Assembly (NCBI GenBank): GCA_030386875.1
Contig: CM059568.1
Span: forward strand, 27,646,120-27,710,119
Origin: Morinoia aosen
Taxonomy: Eukaryota; Arthropoda; Malacostraca; Amphipoda; Talitridae
Direction: 5' to 3'
Length of the DNA stretch: 64,000 nucleotides
The notes beneath the pieces are model-generated. The model was not told the origin of the DNA. It saw nothing but the letters and a program-made list of their open reading frames with translations, and did not search any database. The position numbers and the translations under genes are program-made. Below are positions 10,401 to 50,040 of the stretch, piece after piece (within the stretch, counting starts at the first letter, position 1; every line of letters starts with the position of its first letter).

Positions 10401-10927
10401 TGAGTGAGGTCCAAATTAACACAGATGCTATGTTTACATTTCTCCCCTGGTCTGGCACAAGGCTCTTCAATGACCAATGTGAAAAATTTGGAATCCGTCC
10501 CAAGCGGTTGATTTCTCATTACTCGAGTTGTGGTGACCTCGCAAATGTTTGAGAGATGCGCATTTATGAAGAATAAACCACACGGCAATGCAATGTCTTT
10601 TGATAGTGTTGGACTACCGATGATGCCCCGCTTGTATTCAGTTCGTTCATGACTTCATAAAATATCGTAAAATATTCGAGTCATTTAAGACCCCGATAGC
10701 GAAAAAGTATGACAAAGCTGACACATACATAATCAAGTAGAGCATCATTAAAAACACTCATGAATGTGCGCTTTACACTATTTATTAAATTTTAATAACA
10801 AATGTGAATTCATAACGCATATATTACTTAAACAAAAGTTTTGGTGAAAAAAGATGGTGTTTGTAATGAACATGTTGATCACAAACTGGTATTTTACAAG
10901 TAGTTTTCAACAGGAAACGTATATCTC
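7458..10927. other. Unassigned sequence
   Basis: This long stretch has no recognisable gene. It includes GC-richer patches at about 7690-7970 and 9440-9570 with overlapping short open frames on both strands, none with a recognisable domain. It also holds an AT-rich block of ATAAATA-type simple sequence at about 8920-9120. Confidence 0.35.
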
Positions 10928-10940
10928 ATGAACTACAAAA
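10928..10940. repeat. Left 13-bp target-site duplication of the composite Penelope-like element
   Basis: ATGAACTACAAAA here is identical to the 13 bases at 14691-14703. It is positioned exactly outside the two outward-facing element 3' ends. Penelope-like elements typically produce target duplications of about this length. Confidence 0.75.
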
Positions 10941-11039
10941 TAGTACTTATTGATTTTCGTTTCGGGAAACGTAATCTACATAAAAACAAAATAATCAAGG
11001 AGGGTAAAAACATCATTCATGAAGTCTTCTTTATAGAGC

Positions 11040-11068
11040 TTTCGAGTAAAAACTATACTCATCTTCAG
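11040..11068 (-). ncRNA. Hammerhead-ribozyme-like motif, left arm
   Basis: On the minus strand CTGAAGA is followed by T, a GAGT...ACTC stem with an A/T-rich loop, then GAAA. This matches the conserved CUGANGA / stem II / GAAA order of the hammerhead core, with one extra U before stem II. Hammerhead ribozymes are established components of Penelope-like element termini. Stem III is short (AAG/CTT) and I could not draw a convincing stem I, so catalytic competence is uncertain. Confidence 0.45.
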
Positions 11069-11139
11069 TATCTGGAACATAAATAAACATTCACAAATTA
11101 TAGCAGCAGAGTATATAAACATAGAAAAAGTGATACAAG

Positions 11140-11518
11140 ATTAGATGGGAGTCCTAATTTCAGAGGTGCAGACGAATCTGCTTCATTTAACGTAGGCCTA
11201 GTGTGGTGAATAAGTGTACTTTCTAACAAACGAATATCTAGTTTATTGCTATGGCCTATAATTTCGAAACAATTTTCAGTGATTGGGTGGTCAGCTGCAT
11301 GCGAGTGGTCTCTTATATACTGCTGTGCATAGTGTTGGTGGTAGCTCGCCCAGTACGTATACTGACACCCCCCTATGCTCTGCTATGCGCGTCACCAAGT
11401 GGCGAGTCGTCTCTCCACAATATGTAGCATTACACTGGCCACACTTATATTTATAGACGACGCAGCTTTGCAGGAACTCAGGCATCCTATCAGTAAATCG
11501 GAAAAAACTAACCATCAC
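11140..11518 (-). pseudogene. GIY-YIG-type endonuclease domain of Penelope-like element, left arm
   Basis: The minus-strand reading shows VVYKYKCGQCNATYCGETTR followed by HLVTRIAEH, the GIY-YIG-like core with upstream Cys-x2-Cys typical of Penelope elements. This endonuclease nicks target DNA for target-primed reverse transcription. The frame breaks after a run of six G residues (C on the plus strand, about 11373-11378); the C-terminal part continues in another frame to about 11140. The same G-run break is present in the right arm. Confidence 0.75.
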
Positions 11519-11548
11519 TGAACCTATTGCGAAAAATTATTCTAGGAT

Positions 11549-12240
11549 TTATTTGTGGGTAATATTTAGTGATAAGTGTTTTATTTCGTTTTTTACATAG
11601 CGATTGGTAAACATAGACATGTATGGTAAAGACACGTACAAATTTTTTTTCGGCACATCAAAATTAGCCATCTTTCGCACACGGTGAGAGTCAATTGCCC
11701 TACGAAAAAATTTTTCAATTAAAAACAGGGAAAATGAATTTTTGCAAAAATATGAACGTAAAAATTCTAGCTGTGTTAAAAAAGAGTCATACGTCGAACA
11801 AATTTTAAAGGCTCTATCTACTAGGCAAGAAATAAGATTGCACTTGAAGCTGAAATTAATTGCACTATAATATTTCATTCCTAAGCCAGTGTTCGTTAAT
11901 TTATGAAATACGGTAGTTTTGAACGAGTTAGCAGTTTTTTCTATGCAGACGTCTAAGAAATTGAGTTTATTAAGGTTTTCGTTCTCTTGCGTGAATTTTA
12001 TTGAGGGATGTTTACAATTCAGGTAGTCTAAGAATAAAGCAATGTGACTAGCATCCCTAAATAAAACAAAAGTATCGTCAACATATCTCCGATAGAACAC
12101 AGGCTTAAACAAACTTGGACACTCGTTCAACCAAAGCTGTTCATGATGAGACAGAAATATATTAGCCAAAGTGGGTGAAACGCAACCCCCCATCGGGGCA
12201 CCATCCCTTTGCGAATATAAGTTGCCGTCAAACAAAAATA
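11549..12240 (-). pseudogene. 5'-truncated Penelope-like reverse transcriptase, left arm
   Basis: The minus-strand frame begins inside the reverse transcriptase at LFDGNLYSQRDGAPMGGCV and contains the catalytic YVDD box (RRYVDDTFVLF). It then continues through the thumb-like region to ITHK and a stop. N-terminal domains and the first catalytic Asp motif are missing because the copy is truncated at 12240/12241. It is almost identical to the matching part of the right arm. The frame change to the endonuclease lies near the A-rich run encoding KNEIK, as in the right arm. Confidence 0.85.
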
Positions 12241-12284
12241 CCGAGACCGTGACCTTCAAAGAGGGCGGAGCTACCTCACCACCA
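12241..12284. other. Junction of the two Penelope-like arms
   Basis: Here the minus-strand copy ends (shared string TATTTTTGTTTGACGGC reading leftward) and the plus-strand copy begins. The sequence immediately right of the junction (CCGAGACCGTGACCTTC) is absent from the shared part. A one-step template switch or twin-priming-like event could create such a junction. Confidence 0.6.
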
Positions 12285-12953
12285 AAAGAGACTTCTCAAC
12301 GAGGAAATAGACAAGAAATTCAAACTACGGGCATCGTTGTTCTCATTTCAGTACGGCACGAGAAGAGTTTAAGGCAGCAAACCTCCTGGTTGGACTTCAA
12401 TCTTTTTACAACTTACGTTAAGTCTGGTATGGAAAAGAAAAATGGCATGTACGTTAGAACTTTAAATAGGAAATTGTTTAATTTAGGATTCACCTGGCAG
12501 TACGATTCTCTCAAGCCTGATCAAATCATTTTCAACAAATTAAATAGAATATTAACTGAAAATGAAAAGGATGTACTGAGTCTTGGCTTGAAATTTTGCT
12601 TCGCACCATTAGAGTTGAGTTATTCGCAGCATTTCCTGGCATTTGAAAAGTTTTATGGTTTGCTGAGGGAGAATTCAATTTTTAACGTATATCAGGATTC
12701 TGTAAACTACATTCGATCAACTATAAAAATGTCGCTTTCACATCGTATTACTCATTTCGCAGTAGTTTATCAGCTCGCCACCGGTCAATGATCAACACTC
12801 TAAAAACTCTGCGGAGAGATAGAACCATCATTGTTACGAGACCGGATAAGGGAAATGGTGCAGTCATTTTAGCGCGTAACTCCTATTTATCAAAAATGAA
12901 AACTCTATTGGCCGATTCATCAAAATTTATTCTTTGTTCTGGTGACTTAAGAT
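12285..12953 (+). pseudogene. N-terminal region of Penelope-like polyprotein, right arm
   Basis: Penelope-type N-terminal sequence can be read only by changing frames. LNEEIDKKFKLRASLFSF occurs near 12294; a second frame carries YVRTLNRKLFNLGFTWQYDS and further coding-like sequence to about 12724. After an A run at 12725-12729 the reading shifts by one base into FRSSLSARHRSMINTLKTLR and IIVTRPDKGNGAVIL. The last motif is the conserved segment just upstream of the Penelope reverse transcriptase. The frame then meets a TAG at 12954-12956. These breaks show the copy is dead. Confidence 0.75.
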
Positions 12954-12956
12954 AGG

Positions 12957-14116
12957 CTTTGTTCAAAATAGAAGATAAAGTAAATAGATTTATTGACAAT
13001 ATTTACTCGAAGGGCATTATTTCAGAAGATTTGAGAGAAATGCTGAAAACATCTGGTAGTAAATTGGGAATCATGTACGGTTTGCCTAAAATCCACAAGA
13101 GGGACTTCTCTCTAATACCGATTTTATCAACCATTGGCACATCTAACTACAAATTATCGAAATTTTTAGTATCTCTTTTGACTCCGATTTCAAATAACTG
13201 CTATACTATTAAAGACTTTTTTTCATTTGTACGTGAAATTTGCTCAATGCCAAATAATAACTATGTCATGGCAAGTTTTGACGTTGTATCCCTTTTTACA
13301 AATATTCCTGTGAATGAGACAATTGAAATAGTGTTGTCGAAACTATTTACCAACAAGGACAGATTCAGTGGTTTTGACAGGCAGAGTTTCAAGAAACTGT
13401 TGGAATTATGCACGAAAGATAATCTATTTTTGTTTGACGGCAACTTATATTCGCAAAGGGATGGTGCCCCAATGGGGGGTTGCGTTTCACCCACTTTGGC
13501 TAATATATTTCTGTCTCATCATGAACAGCTTTGGTTGAACGAGTGTCCAAGTTTGTTTAAGCCTGTGTTCTATCGGAGATATGTTGACGATACTTTTGTT
13601 TTATTTAGGGATGCTAGTCACATTGCTTTATTCTTAGACTACCTGAATTGTAAACATCCCTCAATAAAATTCACGCAAGAGAACGAAAACCTTAATAAAC
13701 TCAATTTCTTAGACGTCTGCATAGAAAAAACTGCTAACTCGTTCAAAACTACCGTATTTCATAAATTAACGAACACTGGCTTAGGAATGAAATATTATAG
13801 TGCAATTAATTTCAGCTTCAAGTGCAATCTTATTTCTTGCCTAGTAGATAGAGCCTTTAAAATTTGTTCGACGTATGACTCTTTTTTAACACAGCTAGAA
13901 TTTTTACGTTCATATTTTTGCAAAAATTCATTTCCCCTGTTTTTAATTGAAAAATTTTTTCGTAGGACAATTGACTCTCACCGTGTGCGAAAGATGGCTA
14001 ATTTTGATGTGCCGAAAAAAAATTTGTACGTGTCTTTACCATACATGTCTATGTTTACCAATCGCTATGTAAAAAACGAAATAAAACACTTATCACTAAA
14101 TATTACCCACAAATAA
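12957..14116 (+). pseudogene. Penelope-like reverse transcriptase, right arm
   Basis: A 385-codon uninterrupted frame encodes the reverse transcriptase core that copies element RNA at the nicked target. Counting from the first Phe-containing residue pair (MFKIEDK), visible motifs are GLPKIHK at 41-47, ASFDVVSLF with the first catalytic Asp at 105-113, GAPMGGCVSP at 169-178, and YVDD with the other catalytic Asp pair at 208-211. The sequence is continuous upstream in frame except for TAG at 12954-12956, so the apparent TTG-type start is not a real start. The frame ends at TAA 14114-14116, while the expected continuation YYPQINPRIIF lies in another frame, showing a frameshift near the A-rich run at about 14075-14090. 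Confidence 0.9.
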
Positions 14117-14516
14117 ATCCTAGAATAATTTTTCGCAATAGGTTCAGTGATGGTAGTTTTTTCCGATTTACTGATAGGATGCCTGAGTTCCTGCAAAGCT
14201 GCGTCGTCTATAAATATAAGTGTGGCCAGTGTAATGCTACATATTGTGGAGAGACGACTCGCCACTTGGTGACGCGCATAGCAGAGCATAGGGGGGTGTC
14301 AGTATACGTACTGGGCGAGCTACCACAAACACTTTGCACAGCAGTATAAGGGACCACTCGCATGCAGCTGACCACCCAATCACTGAAAATTGTTTCGGAA
14401 TTATAGGCCATAGCAATAAACTAGATATTCGTTTGTTAGAAAGTACACTTATTCACCATACTAGGCCTACGTTAAATGAAGCAGATTCGTCTGCACCTGT
14501 GTATATTTTAAATTAG
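14117..14516 (+). pseudogene. GIY-YIG-type endonuclease and C-terminus of Penelope-like element, right arm
   Basis: The frame after the reverse transcriptase reads NPRIIFRNRFSDGSFFRF, then VVYKYKCGQCNATYCGETTR (about 14205-14264) and the AEH segment. After a run of six G residues near 14289-14296 the coding sequence continues in a different frame as HSSIRDHSHAADHPITENCF. It ends at a TAG near 14516 after APVYILN. The domain order (reverse transcriptase then GIY-YIG) is diagnostic of EN-positive Penelope-like elements. The G-run frameshift is shared with the left arm. Confidence 0.8.
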
Positions 14517-14601
14517 GACTCCCATCTAATCTTGTATCACTTTTTCTATGTTTATATACTCTGCTGCTATAATTTGTGAATATTTATTTTTGTTCCAGAT
14601 A

Positions 14602-14632
14602 CTGAAGATGAGTGTTGTTTTTTTACTCGAAA
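14602..14632 (+). ncRNA. Hammerhead-ribozyme-like motif, right arm
   Basis: CTGAAGA (14602-14608), then T, stem GAGT...ACTC with a T-rich loop, then GAAA (14629-14632). Bases AAGTT and AACTT downstream can form a short stem III. This is the same motif as in the left arm; the stem is conserved while the loop differs (12 against 9 bases). It lies about 60 bp before the element's 3' end. Cleavage competence is not shown. Confidence 0.45.
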
Positions 14633-14690
14633 GTTCTATAAAGAAAACTTCATGAATGATGTTTTTACCCTCCTTGATTATCATGTTTTT

Positions 14691-14703
14691 ATGAACTACA
14701 AAA
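14691..14703. repeat. Right 13-bp target-site duplication of the composite Penelope-like element
   Basis: This is identical to 10928-10940 and directly follows the plus-strand arm's 3' end. Confidence 0.75.
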
Positions 14704-14942
14704 CTTTTACAATATCTGAAATTGAAGCAAAAATTAGTCTTGTAAATACAATGCATCGTTAGAAGGATATCACTTTATAGTCCCCAGCACTACTTTCTTT
14801 GGAGTCCAGCCGTTTTTGACGAAATTTGCCGTACATATACTTTTTCGCTGCCGAAGGTCTTAAGGTACTCTCGAAATCCTTCATTACCGAGTGTGTCAAC
14901 TACCTATATAAGTTTGGAAAACAGGAGAGCAGCAATGACCAG

Positions 14943-17530: not shown

Positions 17531-19769
17531 AATTTAGCTACATCAAACTTAGCGCAACTGTAAATTTTGCAACATCTGGTCACCAAATTAATTATTGAAG
17601 CCGTTACAGGAATCATGAAACCGACTGAAATGTCTAAAACAAATCTCTTTCTGACATTTTTTTCATCAGTGGAAACTCTGATGCTTCACTCTATTTTGTC
17701 CGTAGTCCTTTTCATCATAACGCTATTCCAAACATTGATGTAGTTTTCTGAGAATGGCATTTGGAAAAACTATACGTGAAAAGGTAATTTCATTTAAAAT
17801 TCACGAAGGCTTGCCCAGCAAGGAAGGCTTACTTCCACGCAAACTTTGTTCAGATTTCTATTGAAATCGGAGGAGTTCTGCGATGCTGCAGGTTGATCTG
17901 GTACGAACATATTGCTAGATCTTCTCTTCAACCTCTACTGTACTTCTCATCCGAGTTAGCTATTGCCCCTAATACTTTTCCTTACATTCTATATTGGTTC
18001 AGCTTTGCTCATGATAAGCGTTACAGTCACCTGAAAAAAATCCCTTTCGAATGATTTCATGTATGCAATAACTTCAACAGCATTCGATATTGAAATTGTC
18101 AATATTGAGGGTAATCTGTCATAAATAGACGTAAATTATTAATTCCCGATACAGAAAAATATATGCACCAAAAGATATTACAATACTCGAAACATAAGAA
18201 TAAGAAACATAAACAACTCGTAACGTAAGAATTTGCTGCAAGGTTGAAGATGATTCATTTTTAGTATAGAACGTGGTGCTATTTCAATATTTTTCGGTAC
18301 TTTTTGACTTTATGGTATTGGGAGACGTTACGACATTTTATTGGGAGACGTTACGTCAAATTTCGTGATTTTTTGCCATTTCCTCGTCACTACCTCCTAG
18401 AGTTGTGCATCGGAAGTGGAATGCAATCGTTTGGATTGAAACGCTTTACAGTCAAACCTGGACGCAGTTCACCGCGCTGGTGTACGGAGCGGGTTACATA
18501 ACTGCACCGTTCCGTCTCCTCGAGAACCGTCTCTTGACCTACCCATTTTTCTTAAACTTTCTAGTCGGAATTTACTTGAAGTTCGTCTCCTCAGTTTCAA
18601 GAACGGGTTCCTCCAGGCTTCCAGGCAGTGGTTCGCACTCTCATCACGTGCCGCCATCTCGCAGATCGACACTAGCTTTTTTCCTCTTCTCTTCATTTCT
18701 TCCTGGTTTTTATTTTGAACTCTATGAACACCATCAAATTTGACCCTTCAAACAGAGAGTTCAAATACTCCTGTTTTTAACGGTTTGAAATGTTTAGTGC
18801 GAAACAAAATGCTCAACCTTTCTCACTTTACACTAGAACTCTTGATCGGTACAATTGTTATTTCAGGTTTAATGCCCGTAACCTGTGACAGCACAATAGC
18901 GTTGTTTCAATCCAGATCACAAGATACCAAGTTTCTCGGTGGGTATTGTCTTTCAGTCTCTCATTACGTGCCGTCGATGCACGATCTATGTGGACTGCAG
19001 GCAATTTCCAATCCCAAGTAACTTCCAACACACACACTGTCTGATGGGACTCTCGGTGTCCCCCCACAGAAAACTTGGACTATCATTTCAAAGTTATGCC
19101 TGCTTTTTTGCTGAAAATATCAGCTGAGATTTTATCATAGAGGTGATATAAATATCGCCGAGAAATGGCCTGAACCAGAGAGAAAATTCTCGTTCTAGCA
19201 AAGTCGTAAAGTTTCTCTACATCATCATGCAGCTACCCATTCTTGTGAGGTTTATACCCGTGCGTAAAACTGCGTTTGGAATTAGGATCGAAGACCGGCA
19301 GCAGCCCTTGATCAAAATACGATTTGTTTAGCGTACTTTTATAGCAACATGAGTTGAAATATGTCCCCAATATTACTTTATTTATTTAGTTTAGGAAAAT
19401 CGTGTTAAGTTAGTAACTATAATGTGCTTAGCACAAGATCGACTTTATTTCACATCTCTTGCCTGTTGGGTACTACTGCATTAAGTTTTACGGTAGCTAT
19501 AGCAGTCCAAGCATCAAATTATTTTGATCTCCTAACAGCGTCACGACAAAAATCACGCTGGACGTTTGTGCTAATAACGGACAGGAAGCTCTATCATATA
19601 AACATACAAGAGACACAATCCAGCCGCTTGTGATCAATTTGTTCGTTAGATAAGCATTATAAATGGGAAAAAATCTCTTCCCATTTAGTGCCTGAGAAAT
19701 TTCTGCTAAATGAGAATAAATTCGACAGGCGTGGAGGTGAGTCCCACCTCTGAGTTTTGGTACTTCCCC
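17531..19769. other. Unassigned sequence with a short direct repeat
   Basis: No gene could be recognised. The string TATTGGGAGACGTTACG occurs twice 26 bp apart (about 18315 and 18340). A GC-richer patch at 18470-18700 gives overlapping open frames on both strands, up to 112 codons, with no recognisable domain. Confidence 0.35.
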
Positions 19770-20079
19770 CATATCAGTCAGGCAGTCACTTTCTCATATC
19801 AGTAAGGCAGTCACTTTCTCATATCAGTAAGGCAGTCAATTCCTCATATCAGTAAGGCAGTCACTTCCGCATATCAGTAAGGCAGTCACTTTCTCATATC
19901 AGTAAGGCAGTCACTTCCTCATATCAGTATGGCAGTCACTTTCTCATATCAGTAAGGCAGTCAATTCCTCATATCAGTAAGGCAGTCACTTCCCCCATAT
20001 CAGTAAGGCAGTCACTTCCTCATATCAGTAAGGCAGTCACTTCCTCATATCAGTAAGGCAGTCACTTCCCCCATATCAC
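19770..20079. repeat. 25-bp tandem array, about 12 units
   Basis: Twelve head-to-tail units follow CATATCAGTAAGGCAGTCAC plus a variable TTYCT tail. Most differ by one or two bases (CACTTTCT, AATTCCT, CACTTCCT, CACTTCCCC). Two units carry an extra C and are 26 bp. The array ends in a diverged half unit (CATATCACAAGG). Low divergence suggests it is young. Confidence 0.95.
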
Positions 20080-25840: not shown

Positions 25841-26990
25841 CGGGATCCTCGTGTCTCGATACTCGTGTTCGGAAGCCTCGTGTCTCGATACTCGTGTTCT
25901 GGATCTTCGTGTCTCAATACTCGTGTTTTGGAGCCTCGTGTCTCGATACTCGTGTTCGGAAGCCTCGTGTCTCGATACTCGTGTTCTGGATCTTCGTGTC
26001 TCGATACTCGTGTTCGGAAGCCTCGTGTCTCGATACTCGTGTTCTGGATCCTCGTGTCTCGATACTCGTGTTCGGAAGCCTCATGTCTCGATACTCGTGT
26101 TCTGGATCCTCGTGTCTCGATACTCGTGTTCTGGATCCTCGTGTCCCGATACTCGTGTTCGGAAGCCTCGTGTCTCGATACACGTGTTCTGGATCCTCGT
26201 GTCTCGATACTCGTGTTCTGGATCCTCGTGTCTCGATACTTGTGTTCGAAAGCCTCGTGTCCCGATACTCGTGTTCTGAATCCTCGTGTCTCGATACTCG
26301 TGTTCTGGATCCTCGTGTCTCGATACTCGTGTTCGGAAGCCTCGTGTCTCGATACTTGTGTTCTGGATCCTCGTGTCTCGATACTCGTGTTCTGGATCCT
26401 CGTGTCTCGATACTTGTGTTCGAAAGCCTCGTGTCTCGATACTCGTGTTCTGGATCTTCGTGTCTCGATACTCGTGTTTTGGAGCCTCGTGTCTCGATAC
26501 TCGTGTTCGGAAGCCTCGTGTCTCGATACTCGTGTTCTGGATCTTCGTGTCTCGATACTCGATCGTGTTCGGAAGCCTCGTGTCTCGATACTCGTGTTCT
26601 GGATCCTCGTGTCTCGATACTCGTGTTCGGAAGCCTCGTGTCTCGATACACGTGTTCTGGATCCTCGTGTCTCGATACTCGTGTTCTGGATCCTCGTGTC
26701 TCAATACTTGTGTTCGGAAGCCTCGTGTCCCGATACTCGTGTTCTGAATCCTCGTGTCTCGATACTCGTGTTCGGAAGCCTCGTGTCTCGATACTCGTGT
26801 TCGGAATCCCCGTGTCTCGATACTCGTGTTCTGGATCCTCGTGTCTCGATACTCGTGTTCTGGATCCTCGTGTCTCGATACTCGTGTTCGGAAGCCTCGT
26901 GTCTCGATACTCGTGTTCTGGATCCTCGTGTCTCGATACTCGTGTTCGGAAGCCTCGTGTCTCGATACTCGTGTTCGGGAGCCTCGTGAC
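25841..26990. repeat. 29-bp minisatellite, about 40 units
   Basis: Roughly forty 29-bp units have the form CTGGATCCTCG or CGGAAGCCTCG followed by TGTCTCGATACTCGTGTT. Each unit is a dimer of related 15-bp and 14-bp halves (TGTTCTGGATCCTCG and TGTCTCGATACTCG). The two variants of the first half are interspersed. The unit contains no stop codon in several frames, so long artificial frames span the array on both strands (493 codons on plus, 364 on minus). Because 29 is not a multiple of three, the predicted protein repeats every 29 residues. One unit near 26560 has a 4-base GATC-type insertion. Confidence 0.97.
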
Positions 26991-30734: not shown

Positions 30735-33700
30735 TCACTGTCTCTTACTCCAGACTCGCGCAAGAAACATTTTCATAGCTTCAATGATACTCAAATTACA
30801 CTCCTGATCCAATCCAGCAAGACAGCTCATACCGCAATCATCTTCAGCACATCTGGCATACCACTCATTCTCTCCATACTGCTCAATCACCACATTCATA
30901 AAACTTTCTCTCTCTTGCTCATACTTACTACATTCCAGCACAAAATGCTCAATTGTTTCCTCCACTCCACTAATACACTGCCGACATAATCTGTTATTAT
31001 TCTCATTCCACCTCCATGTACGTCTGTTCACACTCAATGACTTACGTCTCACAGCAAACAAGAGTTGACTTCCAAAGCTACCATCATAGAACATCTCAAA
31101 CTTAGGTGCTTCTTTTTTCATATACCAGTCAAGTGTAGGCTTCCGCACCATGCTAAGCCTCCACTTATTCAATCCATACTCTTTTGTTTGCCTCTCAATC
31201 TCTTTCTTCTACCTCTTGCAGTCCCACTCAGGCCCTACACCTCCAGGATTTATTAAACTCCAGTCATCCACAGGTCTCCCAATTCTAACATGAATAATCT
31301 TTTGCATACTAAGCTTCCTTGCATGCCCCCAACACACTTTCTCCCAATAGCTTACACTCAGATTCCATTCAAAAATTCGCTTTACCCATCTGCTATTCTG
31401 CATTCTTTCAATTCTCACCTTATAATTCAGCACCGCTTTCATCATTCTTTCTGAAAATAGGCTCCACCCAAGGTCACCTCTAATGGCTTCTGTAGCTGTC
31501 CATTTTGGAGCACCCAATGCTAACCGTCCTACCTTATTTTGTATTACATCCAGCTTTTCAAGATCACTTCCATTCCAGGCAAGAGCACTCATACCATACA
31601 TGACACTAGGTACAGCAACATACTTCCACATTCCTCTCACACATTCATACTTGTTTGCTCTGTATCTGGCCACGCTACTTAATCGTCCACTCCACTGCAT
31701 AGCTTTTGCCACTTTCTCACCCTTAGTTCTAGTGCATCCATCTTCACTTATCATACAACCTAGATATTTGTATTCTTTTGTTCTACCTATTCTGATTTCT
31801 CCAATATTCCACAGTCTGTCTCTATCAGTCTCATTACTATTTATAACCATAACCTTGCTTTTGTCGGCACCGAAGTTCATCTTGAAATCTGTACTATATC
31901 CGTTCACAATGTCAAGCATCCTTTGCAGTTCATGTCCACATCCACTAACCACAACCACATCATCAGCATACAACAAACAGCTCAGTCTCTCATTACCAAT
32001 TTTCAGTCCTAAGCCACTCCTTCTCAGTCGAACTGCTAATTCTTCTGTGTACAATCCAAACAACAGGGGAGACAGAGTACAGCCCTGTCTCACTCCTCTA
32101 ACACTCCTCACTTGCCCTGTTTCCAAATTTCCTAACCTGTATATAGCGCTTGTGTTCTCATACAGACTTTGTACAATTTTCACTATTTTTCTGCTAAACC
32201 CAACTTTTCTCAAAACTTCAAAGAGCCTAACCCGGTCCACTCTGTCATACGCTTTTTCAATATCCAGGAATGCTAAATACACCTTCTTATCATCCTTCCT
32301 CATTCGCTCAATTATTTCACCCACTACAAACAGATTATCTTCCCCACGTCTATCTTGCCTAAAACCATTCTGTTCTTCACCTAGGACTCCTAATTCCTCA
32401 ACTAAATTTTTCATTCTCTCATTAAAAATACCACAAAATATCTTACATACAGTGTCACCCAGTGCAATTGGTCTGTAATTTTTAAGTTCTTTCATACTCT
32501 TATGTCCACCCTTATGCAACAGAACTACATTACACATGTTCCAGTCATCCGGTACTCTTTCACTCTTCCATATCTCATCAAATAAACATTTCAACATACT
32601 GACTACACTCTCTCCTCCACATTTATAGAACTCATATGGGATCTTATCAGGGCCACATGCCTTTTCATTTTTCACTTTCTTCAAAAAACTTACAATCTCT
32701 TCACAAGTGATTTCGTCTTCCATTTGCAGTTCACGTTCGTCAATCAGAAAATTTATGGGTGCATCATCTGTAACCTGCTCATTCATTCCACCAATGTCCT
32801 CCCAGTATTCAACTGCTTTCACCATTTACATCCTATCTTGCACACTGCAACCATTAACTACTAATTCATCAACTTGAACTTCACTACTTCTATCATTACC
32901 TTGTATAAACTTATACCAATCTTTTATTCCATCCAGACCTTTCTTTCTTAGATTTTCAACTTGGTGTCTCTCCTCTTTAACTCTAGCCTCATTAATCATT
33001 CTCCTTACTTTCTTCTGCTGGTCCTTGTACTCATTCCATGCACTCTGTCATTCATCCTCAGTAATTCTGTTTCTTTCATACATTTTCCTCATACTGCGTT
33101 GTTTCTTATTCAAAGTCTTTCTTCTCATTCGTTCTTCCTTTATCTTACTTGTAAACCACCTGGCATTCCCTGTCCCTTTCCTACATTTTATTCTACCAAT
33201 CTTTTGCTCTGCCACATCATACCAGGTTCTTGCAATCTCACCATTTAGGTCATTTACATTTCCACACCTGTTCCAGTTATACCTACTCAATTCATTCTTA
33301 AATTCTTCCCAGTTTGCCTTTTTTATCTGCCAACTTTCTTTCACACTACTGACCTTCTGCATTGACTCCTTTCTACCCCAGTTATATTCAAGCACAAGCA
33401 TTTTATGGTCACTATCAATATCAAAATCATCTTCATCTACAAACATTTCATTGACACACTCTCTTGCTCTACTATTCATAATCATATAGTCAATTGCAGT
33501 TTTCCATTCCCTGCTTTGCCATGTATGCAAGCCATTTCCTATTGTGACATTCAGGTTTTCAAGTTCATTCTCATCACAAAAATCTATCAATTTTTGTCCA
33601 TTTGCATTCACTGGCTCACCAAGTATACCAACATGGCCATTCATGTCACCCATCACAATCAGAGGGCACCTGCCGTGTTCTCGTACAATCCTTGTTAATA

Positions 33701-34148
33701 TTTCATACTTTTTTACATTCTCTTCATGAGCTAAAATCCCATCAGTTGTCATATAACATACAATCACAACAATACATTCTCTGGCATGCATTCTTTCACA
33801 CTTAATTGCTAACAAATCTTCACTTTCAGGTTCATTTCCAACAGGAAGTTCCTCTAATTTCCAATTTAGAGCATTCTTTACAATCAAACCAACTCCACCA
33901 CCTCTTTTTTGCCAATTTACACGCCCTTTTCCTATCATATGATACTTATTCTCCTTACATGTTAAACTGACTCTATCACGCATTTGGGTCTCTACTACAC
34001 CAACACAATCCAATTTTCCATTCTCAAATTCTACTACGAGGTCATCTAACTTTCCTGCATTCCATCCACGCACATTTATACTTCCAAACCTTACAACACA
34101 ATTGGACAATTCCAGACGTTCCTCACTTTTGCTCTGACGGATTTTCAT
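30735..34148 (-). pseudogene. LINE ORF2: APE endonuclease and reverse transcriptase, three nonsense codons
   Basis: The frame spans about 1138 codons. The endonuclease (codons 1-250) shows INVRGW, VVETQ, GDMNGHVG, TAIDYMI and DSDHKMLVLEY, the metal-binding and catalytic blocks of APE-type LINE endonucleases. The reverse transcriptase (about 490-780) shows NYRPIALGD at 557, FLDIEKAYD with the first catalytic Asp near 630, RQGCTLSPLL, and YADD at 727-730. The C-terminus (about 1054-1080) has CRQC...H...C, a Cys/His knuckle common in arthropod LINEs. Stops lie in the same frame at 33048-33050 (TGA), 32826-32828 (TAA) and 31209-31211 (TAG). All three could arise from Arg/Gln codons by single C-to-T changes. 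The stops separate the enzyme into four pieces, so it is not expected to work. Confidence 0.9.
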
Positions 34149-46600: not shown

Positions 46601-47121
46601 GAGCTTCTGTTGAATCAACCGAAACATAAAGAAGCTTCTGGGTAAGTGGCAGTTTCAAGAGATTCTGCTACTACGACAGAGGAACCGGAAATTGTACGGT
46701 CCTCTGATGCATCTGCCACGTGCAGATACATTATGGTGCCCAGTATATATTACATGCGATGTACTTTTGTTACATAGAAGTATAGCTGCAAGGCTATATT
46801 TACGAACCGCAGTGAACGATGCAATAAAAGAACTTTACGAAACTTCCTATTAACGCGGGAAGTCTTCCGCGTTAATAGGAAGTTACTAGTTCTTTTATTG
46901 CACATTTCACTGCGGTCCGTACACATAGCCTTGCAGCTATACTTCAATGTGACAAAAGTACATCGCATGTAATATATACTGGGCACCATAATGTATCTGC
47001 ACGTGGCAGATGCATCAGAGGGCCGTCCAATTTCCGGTTCCTTTGTCGTAGTAACAGAATTTCTTGAAACTGTCACTAACCCAGAGGCTTCTTTATGTTT
47101 CTGTAAATTCAACAGAAGCTC
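46601..47121. repeat. 520-bp foldback (near-perfect inverted repeat)
   Basis: The left arm 46601-46859 and right arm 46866-47121 are reverse complements with few mismatches. They meet at a near-perfect centre (TATTAACGCGGGAAGTCTTC followed by CGCGTTAATA). Both arms carry GCTTCTGTTGAATC/CAACAGAAGC-type copies of the subterminal motif. Short loops of this kind are hard to replicate or clone, which makes the region a likely spot for assembly artefacts or instability. Confidence 0.9.
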
Positions 47122-49828: not shown

Positions 49829-50040
49829 TGTTCTGCCGACAGCTGAATTGTCCGCTCTACCAGCTGCTAAAGAGTCTGCTCTACCAACAGCTCAAGTGTC
49901 TGCTCTACCAGCTGCTAAAGAGTCTGCTCTACCAACAGCTGAAGTGTCTGCTCTACCAGCTGCTAAAGAGTCTGCTCTACCAACAGCTGAAGTGTCTGCT
50001 CTACCAGCTCTTGAAGCGTCCGTCCCTCCAACGGCTCTGC
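49829..50040. repeat. 24/48-bp tandem repeat, about 8 half units
   Basis: TCTGCTCTACCAGCTGCTAA and TCTGCTCTACCAACAGCTGA half units (24 bp each) alternate to make a 48-bp unit. Because 24 is a multiple of three, a plus-strand frame (49773-50204, 143 codons) reads SALPAAKE/SALPTAEV repeats. A second frame reads QLLKSLLY repeats. I saw no splice or domain support for a gene, but the in-frame period keeps it possible. Confidence 0.9.

What the first reader, a model, noticed from the sequence alone, without database searches (positions are those of the whole stretch)
10928..14703. Head-to-head Penelope-like dimer inserted as a single unit
Seen directly: a 5'-truncated minus-strand copy (10941-12240) abuts a longer plus-strand copy (12241-14690), and the pair is bracketed by a perfect 13-bp repeat, ATGAACTACAAAA. 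Known: Penelope elements show partial tandem and inverted duplications and target duplications of about this length. Inference: the duplication bracketing both arms means the inverted arrangement existed at, or arose during, integration. This would be one reverse-transcription event with a template switch or twin priming, not two insertions.
Basis: partly seen in the sequence, partly recalled or inferred. Interest (0 to 1): 0.75.

Follow-up and report, generated by a model that had tools for sequence, protein, structure and literature searches.

The report
Two-sided Penelope-like retrotransposon insertion
This looks like a jumping gene of the Penelope type that was copied into the chromosome from both sides of one staggered cut, leaving two head-to-head copies; many relatives in the same genome look alike, which bears on how this poorly understood class of element inserts itself.

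Summary
Confirmed: a minus-strand Penelope-like (PLE) arm (10941-12240), a 5-bp filler and a plus-strand arm (12246-14690) lie between perfect 13-bp repeats. Four paralogous empty sites that were read carry the 13-mer once (one to three mismatches). So one integration event is right. Twin priming is not: both arms carry the element's 3' end and overlap by about 1.25 kb.

Best reading: both 3' ends of one staggered break primed reverse transcription, and the two cDNA ends were then joined. By coordinates 19 of 29 listed sites of this family and 18 of 24 of a sister family are head-to-head, none tail-to-tail (capped lists). No two of 21 junctions share coordinates. In 20 of 20 dimers with a terminal repeat, 11 of 11 more and 2 of 2 of the sister family, exactly one arm carries the 3' 'tail'. 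Head-to-head PLEs with a tail on one end are already described (PMC3846280), and a PLE protein that cuts and extends both strands from two RNA sites is known in vitro (PMC11167929). The strict one-tail rule, joining these, is the interesting part.

The parts
10928..10940 (+). left copy of the 13-bp target site duplication ATGAACTACAAAA
   Evidence: exact repeat, only two in the window, 0 in shuffles; single copy in four paralogous empty sites
10941..10981 (-). 41-nt 3' 'tail' of the minus arm (element unit 2488-2528), absent from the plus arm
   Evidence: one tailed arm in 33 of 33 dimers with both ends readable
10941..12240 (-). minus-strand PLE arm, 5'-truncated (unit 1183 to 2528), 3' end outwards
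11040..11068 (-). hammerhead-ribozyme-like core in the minus arm (CTGAAGA ... GAAA)
   Evidence: pattern; no Rfam match
12241..12245 (.). 5-bp filler CCGAG at the head-to-head junction
   Evidence: matches neither arm
12246..14690 (+). plus-strand PLE arm, untailed (unit 1 to 2487), 3' end outwards; reading frame broken
12956..14113 (+). open frame with reverse transcriptase domain (YVDD)
   Evidence: Pfam RVT_1 35.9 bits, E 8.3e-9
14008..14346 (+). frame with the GIY-YIG endonuclease-like end of the protein
   Evidence: Pfam PF01541 13.4 bits, below its cut-off of 22.6; motif by eye
14602..14632 (+). hammerhead-ribozyme-like core in the plus arm
   Evidence: pattern; no Rfam match
14691..14703 (+). 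right copy of the 13-bp target site duplication
10678..14879 (.). older interspersed repeat (about 420-440 bp without the dimer) that was the target
   Evidence: joined flanks match 38 other places across the join at 75-79%

Best explanation
The pair is a single integration of a Penelope-like element by two-sided target-primed reverse transcription. A staggered break duplicated 13 bp (shown by the repeat and the paralogous empty sites); its geometry implies 13-nt 3' overhangs (inferred). Each of the two 3'-OH ends primed reverse transcription of element RNA (inferred from the element's 3' end abutting both copies of the duplication). The two primings started at two RNA places, 41 nt apart here, so one arm has the tail and the other lacks it (shown as sequence). 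The two cDNAs stopped at unrelated points and their free ends were joined head to head with microhomology or a short filler (shown as sequence; joining by host alternative end joining is inferred). Each cDNA could then serve as second-strand template for the other (inferred).
For: Duplication and chance level. Empty sites: 38 of 38 other listed matches (40 of 552 candidates scored) run across the join, 4 of these read base by base, each with one copy of the 13-mer (one mismatch in L065-L067, three in L068). Census by coordinates: family 1, 19 of 29 listed sites (-)(+), 0 (+)(-); sister family 18 of 24 and 0 (40 of 1162 and 40 of 771 candidates scored); two more family-1 sites prove head-to-head by mapping. 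Terminal repeats: 20 of 21 dimers, lengths 7, 11, 12 (eight), 13 (seven), 14 (three). Tail rule: 20 of 20 dimers with a repeat, found with a query that lacks the tail; 11 of 11 more with both ends readable; 2 of 2 of the sister family. 3' ends fall in two zones: tailed 2513-2540; untailed 2479-2496 in 18 of 20, outliers 2438 and 2139. Sister arms of the window differ at 16 of 1245 sites, from the nearest other copy at 50 or more of 1237. Junctions: 9 of 21 with 2-11 bp microhomology, 4 of 21 with 5 or more against 0.7% per random junction; 11 of 21 with 2-31 bp filler, one blunt. Both-strand cutting and extension and two RNA start sites in vitro: PMC11167929.
Against: Not every copy is a dimer: C5, C11:60453401, L046, L058 and L042 (=L047) are single-armed with a terminal repeat (8 bp in L042; in L046 and L058 7 and 22 bp of other sequence lie between repeat and arm), and C9:19987470, C17:2848337 (=C17:4122815) and L053 are single-armed with none found. 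L044 and L059 end in 41-42 bp fold-backs, so snap-back also happens. The in vitro work saw no apparent difference in start site between strands, which does not by itself predict one of each per insertion. The untailed arm of C14 starts at 2139, that of C17:30123831 at 2438. Of 12 dimers with 900 or more comparable sites, two (C9:2878950, C9:59500328) do not have the sister arm as nearest and one is tied. C9:4715257 has no terminal repeat, C17:14790260 only 7 bp, and that of C15 lies in an (AT)n run; four of the 11 further dimers (L040, L041, L048, L054) have no exact repeat of 8 bp or more.
Confidence: 0.82

Rival explanations
1. L1-like twin priming: two primers anneal to one RNA and copy different stretches, giving an inverted 5' part next to a sense 3' part (recalled mechanism).
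For: Inverted junction inside one target duplication; small junction filler.
Against: The arms overlap over 1245 aligned sites and both reach the 3' end of the element; twin priming would give one 3' end only.
Confidence: 0.03
2. Self-priming (fold-back) of cDNA or of antisense RNA, as proposed for PLEs in Adineta vaga (PMC3846280).
For: Head-to-head is the orientation expected from an antisense template in that proposal; L044 and L059 look like true fold-backs.
Against: A fold-back should make both arms begin at nearly the same element coordinate; in 19 of 21 junctions they do not (the two close ones are 225/231 and 893/864; window 1183/1). It does not predict a different 3' start on each arm.
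Confidence: 0.07
3. Two successive insertions of single copies at one place.
For: Single-armed copies with their own terminal repeats exist.
Against: In the window one repeat brackets both arms; 37 of 53 listed sites are (-)(+) and none (+)(-); sister arms are alike in most informative pairs.
Confidence: 0.02
4. A pre-existing dimer (master copy or dimer RNA) is copied as a unit.
For: Arms of one dimer are near identical.
Against: No two of 21 junctions have the same coordinates, so no master junction was seen.
Confidence: 0.02
5. Assembly or sequencing artefact (palindromic read).
For: Inverted copies are a known artefact type (recalled).
Against: The arms differ at 16 of 1245 sites plus indels, end at different element positions and share an exact target repeat.
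Confidence: 0.02

Closest known systems
Penelope elements of Adineta vaga, e.g. Pen2a_Av (PMC3846280, passages read)
   Different: duplications of 8-10 bp in the passages read; the inverted part in Pen2a is a short pLTR; explained there by self-priming, on an antisense template
Poseidon PLE of Anolis carolinensis, PAc (PMC11167929, parts 1-3 of 4 of the text read)
   Same: two RNA start sites that define the tail; protein cuts and extends both strands; hammerhead motif; tandem repeats; AT-rich targets
   Different: in vitro, later steps of integration not tested; no apparent strand difference in start site reported
LINE-1 twin priming (recalled)
   Same: inverted junction inside one target duplication
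   Different: arms do not overlap and only one carries the 3' end

Membership tests
Penelope-like element | reverse transcriptase domain | tested here: met
   RVT_1 35.9 bits in the window, 38.6 bits in the sister family's 833-aa open frame, cut-off 29.6
Penelope-like element | C-terminal GIY-YIG endonuclease | tested here: inconclusive
   right place and order, but 13.4-13.6 and 15.5 bits against a cut-off of 22.6; no PDB relative of the sister-family protein by sequence at E <= 1
Penelope-like element | tandem or partial tandem copies giving pseudo-LTRs | tested here: met
   relatives C6:6801888, C8:38501336 mapped, others by coordinates; the window copy itself is not tandem
Penelope-like element | 30-40 nt 3' tail, optional, on one end | tested here: met
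   41 nt on the minus arm; 22-50 nt difference between arms in 18 dimers
Penelope-like element | hammerhead ribozyme motif near the ORF start | tested here: inconclusive
   core pattern in 52 of 62 loci, stem II mostly 5 bp or more but stem I only 0-1 bp as my script counted it, without a skipped base; the two folds show three stems but are no stronger than shuffles; no Rfam match
Penelope-like element | target site duplication | tested here: met
   13 bp, with paralogous empty sites
LINE-1 twin-priming product | arms are non-overlapping parts of one RNA (recalled) | tested here: not met
   1245 aligned overlapping sites

The most novel reading that the evidence does not exclude
PLE integration is asymmetric and two-sided by design: a protein dimer places its two active sites at two RNA positions, so each integration starts one cDNA at each position, one on each target strand, and the two cDNAs then act as second strand for each other. 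Head-to-head dimers would be the normal product, and single-armed copies the cases where one cDNA failed or joined the target directly.
Probability: 0.5. Interest if true: 0.72.

Novelty: new member of a known kind. Interest (0 to 1): 0.5.

Why it matters
How PLEs complete integration, second strand included, was left for later work in the one biochemical study read here. A genome with dozens of readable events, each with one tailed and one untailed arm, turns the two in vitro start sites into a testable rule: one per strand per event. It would also explain the inverted-repeat structures of PLEs as products of one mechanism.

Tried and rejected
Twin priming, fold-back, two insertions, master dimer and artefact were weighed and set aside (see rivals). 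A rule that the tailed or the untailed arm is always the longer: false, both occur. Unit-by-unit sharing between arms of tandem insertions: none seen; all 21 variable columns of the C6 array and all 9 of the C8:38501336 array are single-unit differences, which fits one homogeneous template (a circular RNA or a fresh multimer) but does not tell which. A hairpin between the two RNA start sites: folds in the window's arm and in the sister family, not in the two younger variants tried, so left open. Microhomology between target end and RNA at priming: mean 1.8 nt against 0.56 in shuffles, 0 of 5000 as high; taking the longest repeat as the duplication inflates the observed value, by my estimate about twofold, so I count it only as weak. 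Arm 5' ends near the hammerhead-like cleavage site: C5, the left arm of C24:41730998 and the left arm of L062 lie at unit 2425-2428; post hoc, suggestive only. The host species was not identified.

Papers: PMC11167929 parts 1-3 of 4 read; PMC3846280, PMC12910113 and PMC8969392 passages only; PMC8557442 not held. Six library searches; for all other papers I saw only the listing and the start of the abstract. In what I read nobody states that each insertion has exactly one tailed arm; PMC3846280 says the tail is optionally present on one of the inverted pLTRs. This is no proof that it is not in print: the 2005 and 2006 PLE reviews named and the 2021 paper were not read.
Full report
What is there. 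The window holds two reverse-complementary arms of a Penelope-like element. Left arm, minus strand, 10941-12240; 5-bp filler 12241-12245; right arm, plus strand, 12246-14690; a perfect 13-bp repeat outside both. The 13-mer occurs twice in the window and in none of 100 shuffles. The plus arm's frame is broken into several open stretches; one carries a reverse transcriptase domain (RVT_1, 35.9 bits), the next the end of a GIY-YIG-like endonuclease below Pfam's cut-off. In element coordinates (a 2684-bp unit taken unchanged from a tandem array on contig C6) the minus arm runs from 1183 to 2528 and the plus arm from 1 to 2487. The minus arm therefore has 41 extra nucleotides at its 3' end, the 'tail'.

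Empty sites. The flanks, joined with one 13-mer, match 38 other listed places in the same genome, all across the join, at 75-79% identity (40 of 552 candidates scored). Four of the 38 were read; in each the target runs straight through with a single copy of the 13-mer, with one mismatch in three and three mismatches in the fourth. So the dimer entered an older interspersed repeat and duplicated 13 bp around both arms. These are paralogous sites, not the same locus without the insertion.

Census. By coordinates alone (hits less than 3 kb apart joined), 19 of 29 listed sites of this family have a (-)(+) step and none has (+)(-); for a sister family (72-74% DNA identity, 76% protein identity over the RT stretch) it is 18 of 24 and none. 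The sites include segmental duplicates or what look like them (C17:2848337 and C17:4122815; the two C27 sites, which share a left flank; two on C12 with the same layout, letters not read). Mapping adds two family-1 sites whose right arm is short (C27:39790037, C8:42137589), making 21 of 29. The other eight: C5, the two C17 copies, C9:19987470, C11:60453401 and C6:27003307 (L053) are single-armed; C27:39516011 was read only in pieces (L050-L052); C7:75975231 was not fetched. The listings score 40 of 1162 and 40 of 771 candidates, so they are not complete.

Terminal repeats. The 22 loci entered hold 21 head-to-head dimers and the single-armed C5. An exact direct repeat at both outer borders was found in 20 of the 21 dimers: one of 7 bp, one of 11, eight of 12, seven of 13 and three of 14. 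That of C15 lies in an (AT)n run. C9:4715257 gave none. The repeats are 77% A+T.

The tail rule. In all 20 dimers with a repeat, one arm ends at unit 2513-2540 (tailed) and the other before 2500: 18 between 2479 and 2496, one at 2438, one at 2139. This set was found with a query that lacks the tail. A second set: 10 loci from a search with a tailed query (L042 and L047 are one insertion with its flanks duplicated) and seven more from tailed queries (L054-L060), four of these seven picked because paired hits were visible. Eleven of these are dimers with both ends readable by BLAST, and all 11 have one tailed and one untailed arm; by choice they hold at least one tail. Six of the 11 have an exact repeat found by script, L057 one of 12 bp by eye, and L040, L041, L048 and L054 none of 8 bp or more. 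The two dimers read in the sister family, picked for paired hits, agree and have repeats of 14 and 13 bp. That is 33 of 33. Not counted: L044 and L059 (right end not determined) and C9:4715257 (left arm tailed, right arm ending at 2170, no repeat). If tails fell independently on half of the ends, 20 of 20 in the first set would have a chance of about one in a million (my arithmetic).

Junctions. Of 21 head-to-head junctions no two share coordinates; 9 show 2-11 bp of shared sequence, 1 is blunt, 11 have 2-31 bp of filler, some of it a repeat of letters next to the break; four overlaps of 5 bp or more compare with 0.7% expected per random junction. The filler at C17:30123831 is probably arm sequence of another subfamily rather than true filler. 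The C6 junction also holds a 48-bp piece of element. This looks like alternative end joining (inference). In two of 21 the arms begin within 30 bp of the same coordinate (225/231, 893/864), so a fold-back does not explain the rest.

Sister arms. The two arms of the window differ at 16 of 1245 aligned positions (indels left out); the nearest other copy differs at 50 or more of 1237. Of 12 dimers with 900 or more comparable sites, 9 have the sister arm as the nearest copy, C7:26742534 is tied on one side, and C9:2878950 and C9:59500328 do not. Eight pairs have under 400 sites and say little; in several of these another copy is as near or nearer. So the two arms mostly come from the same source. 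Tandem insertions (C6: left arm of about 17.4 kb, six full or nearly full units and a part; C8:38501336: several units in both arms) show only single-unit differences.

Mechanism. PMC11167929 reports that a purified PLE protein from a lizard cuts and extends both strands of its target and starts reverse transcription at two adjacent internal RNA sites that match the genomic tail, with no apparent difference between strands. PMC3846280 describes head-to-head PLEs with a target duplication and a tail optionally on one of the inverted ends, and proposes self-priming, with an antisense template. The data here fit the first finding and extend it: one integration uses both sites, one on each side of the staggered break, and the cDNAs are joined head to head. 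Shown: duplication, empty sites, two start zones, one tail per dimer, a new junction each time. Inferred: protein dimer with fixed RNA positions, host end joining, each cDNA as second strand for the other.

Single arms. C5, C11:60453401, L046, L058 and L042/L047 are single-armed with a terminal repeat (that of C5 in a (TAT)n run) and all are tailed; three of these five were chosen by the tail, so I draw little from it. C9:19987470, C17:2848337 and L053 are single-armed, untailed, with no repeat found.

Verdict. The single-event inference is right; twin priming is not. The structure is a known habit of Penelope-like elements; the strict one-tail rule across dozens of insertions is the part that I have not seen stated and that can be tested.

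Noticed in passing
window 31212-34148, minus strand: Another retrotransposon, LINE-like: frames with RVT_1 (108 bits) and an endonuclease-reverse transcriptase domain (Exo_endo_phos_2, 42 bits).
   Followed up: partly
window 25843-26988: 29-bp minisatellite, about 39 copies, open in several frames on both strands.
   Followed up: no
window 46601-47121: Inverted repeat with 234-nt arms, 92% complementary, 53 nt apart.
   Followed up: no
window 19762-20078 and 49832-50036: Short tandem arrays, periods 25 and 24/48 bp.
   Followed up: no
G000:C23:39957954-39989098: Sister-family site with one minus and nine plus hits in the listing, perhaps a head-to-head insertion with a long tandem arm; letters not read.
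   Followed up: no
G000:C6:6800388-6821150: Left arm of about 17.4 kb made of six full or nearly full tandem units and a part, right arm 1.5 kb; single-unit differences only, as if copied from a circle or a fresh multimer.
   Followed up: partly
L023:362-392: A hammerhead-like motif of a different sequence, with an 8-bp stem II, perhaps of a third PLE family.
   Followed up: no
element unit 205-231: Four arm 5' ends and one junction insert begin in this 27-bp stretch, more than even spacing would give; possibly a stop or switch point; seen post hoc.
   Followed up: no
G000:C14:0.47-14.6 Mb: A cluster of more than ten hits of the tailed 3' end; the two that were read (L042, L047) are one single-armed insertion with its flanks duplicated.
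   Followed up: partly
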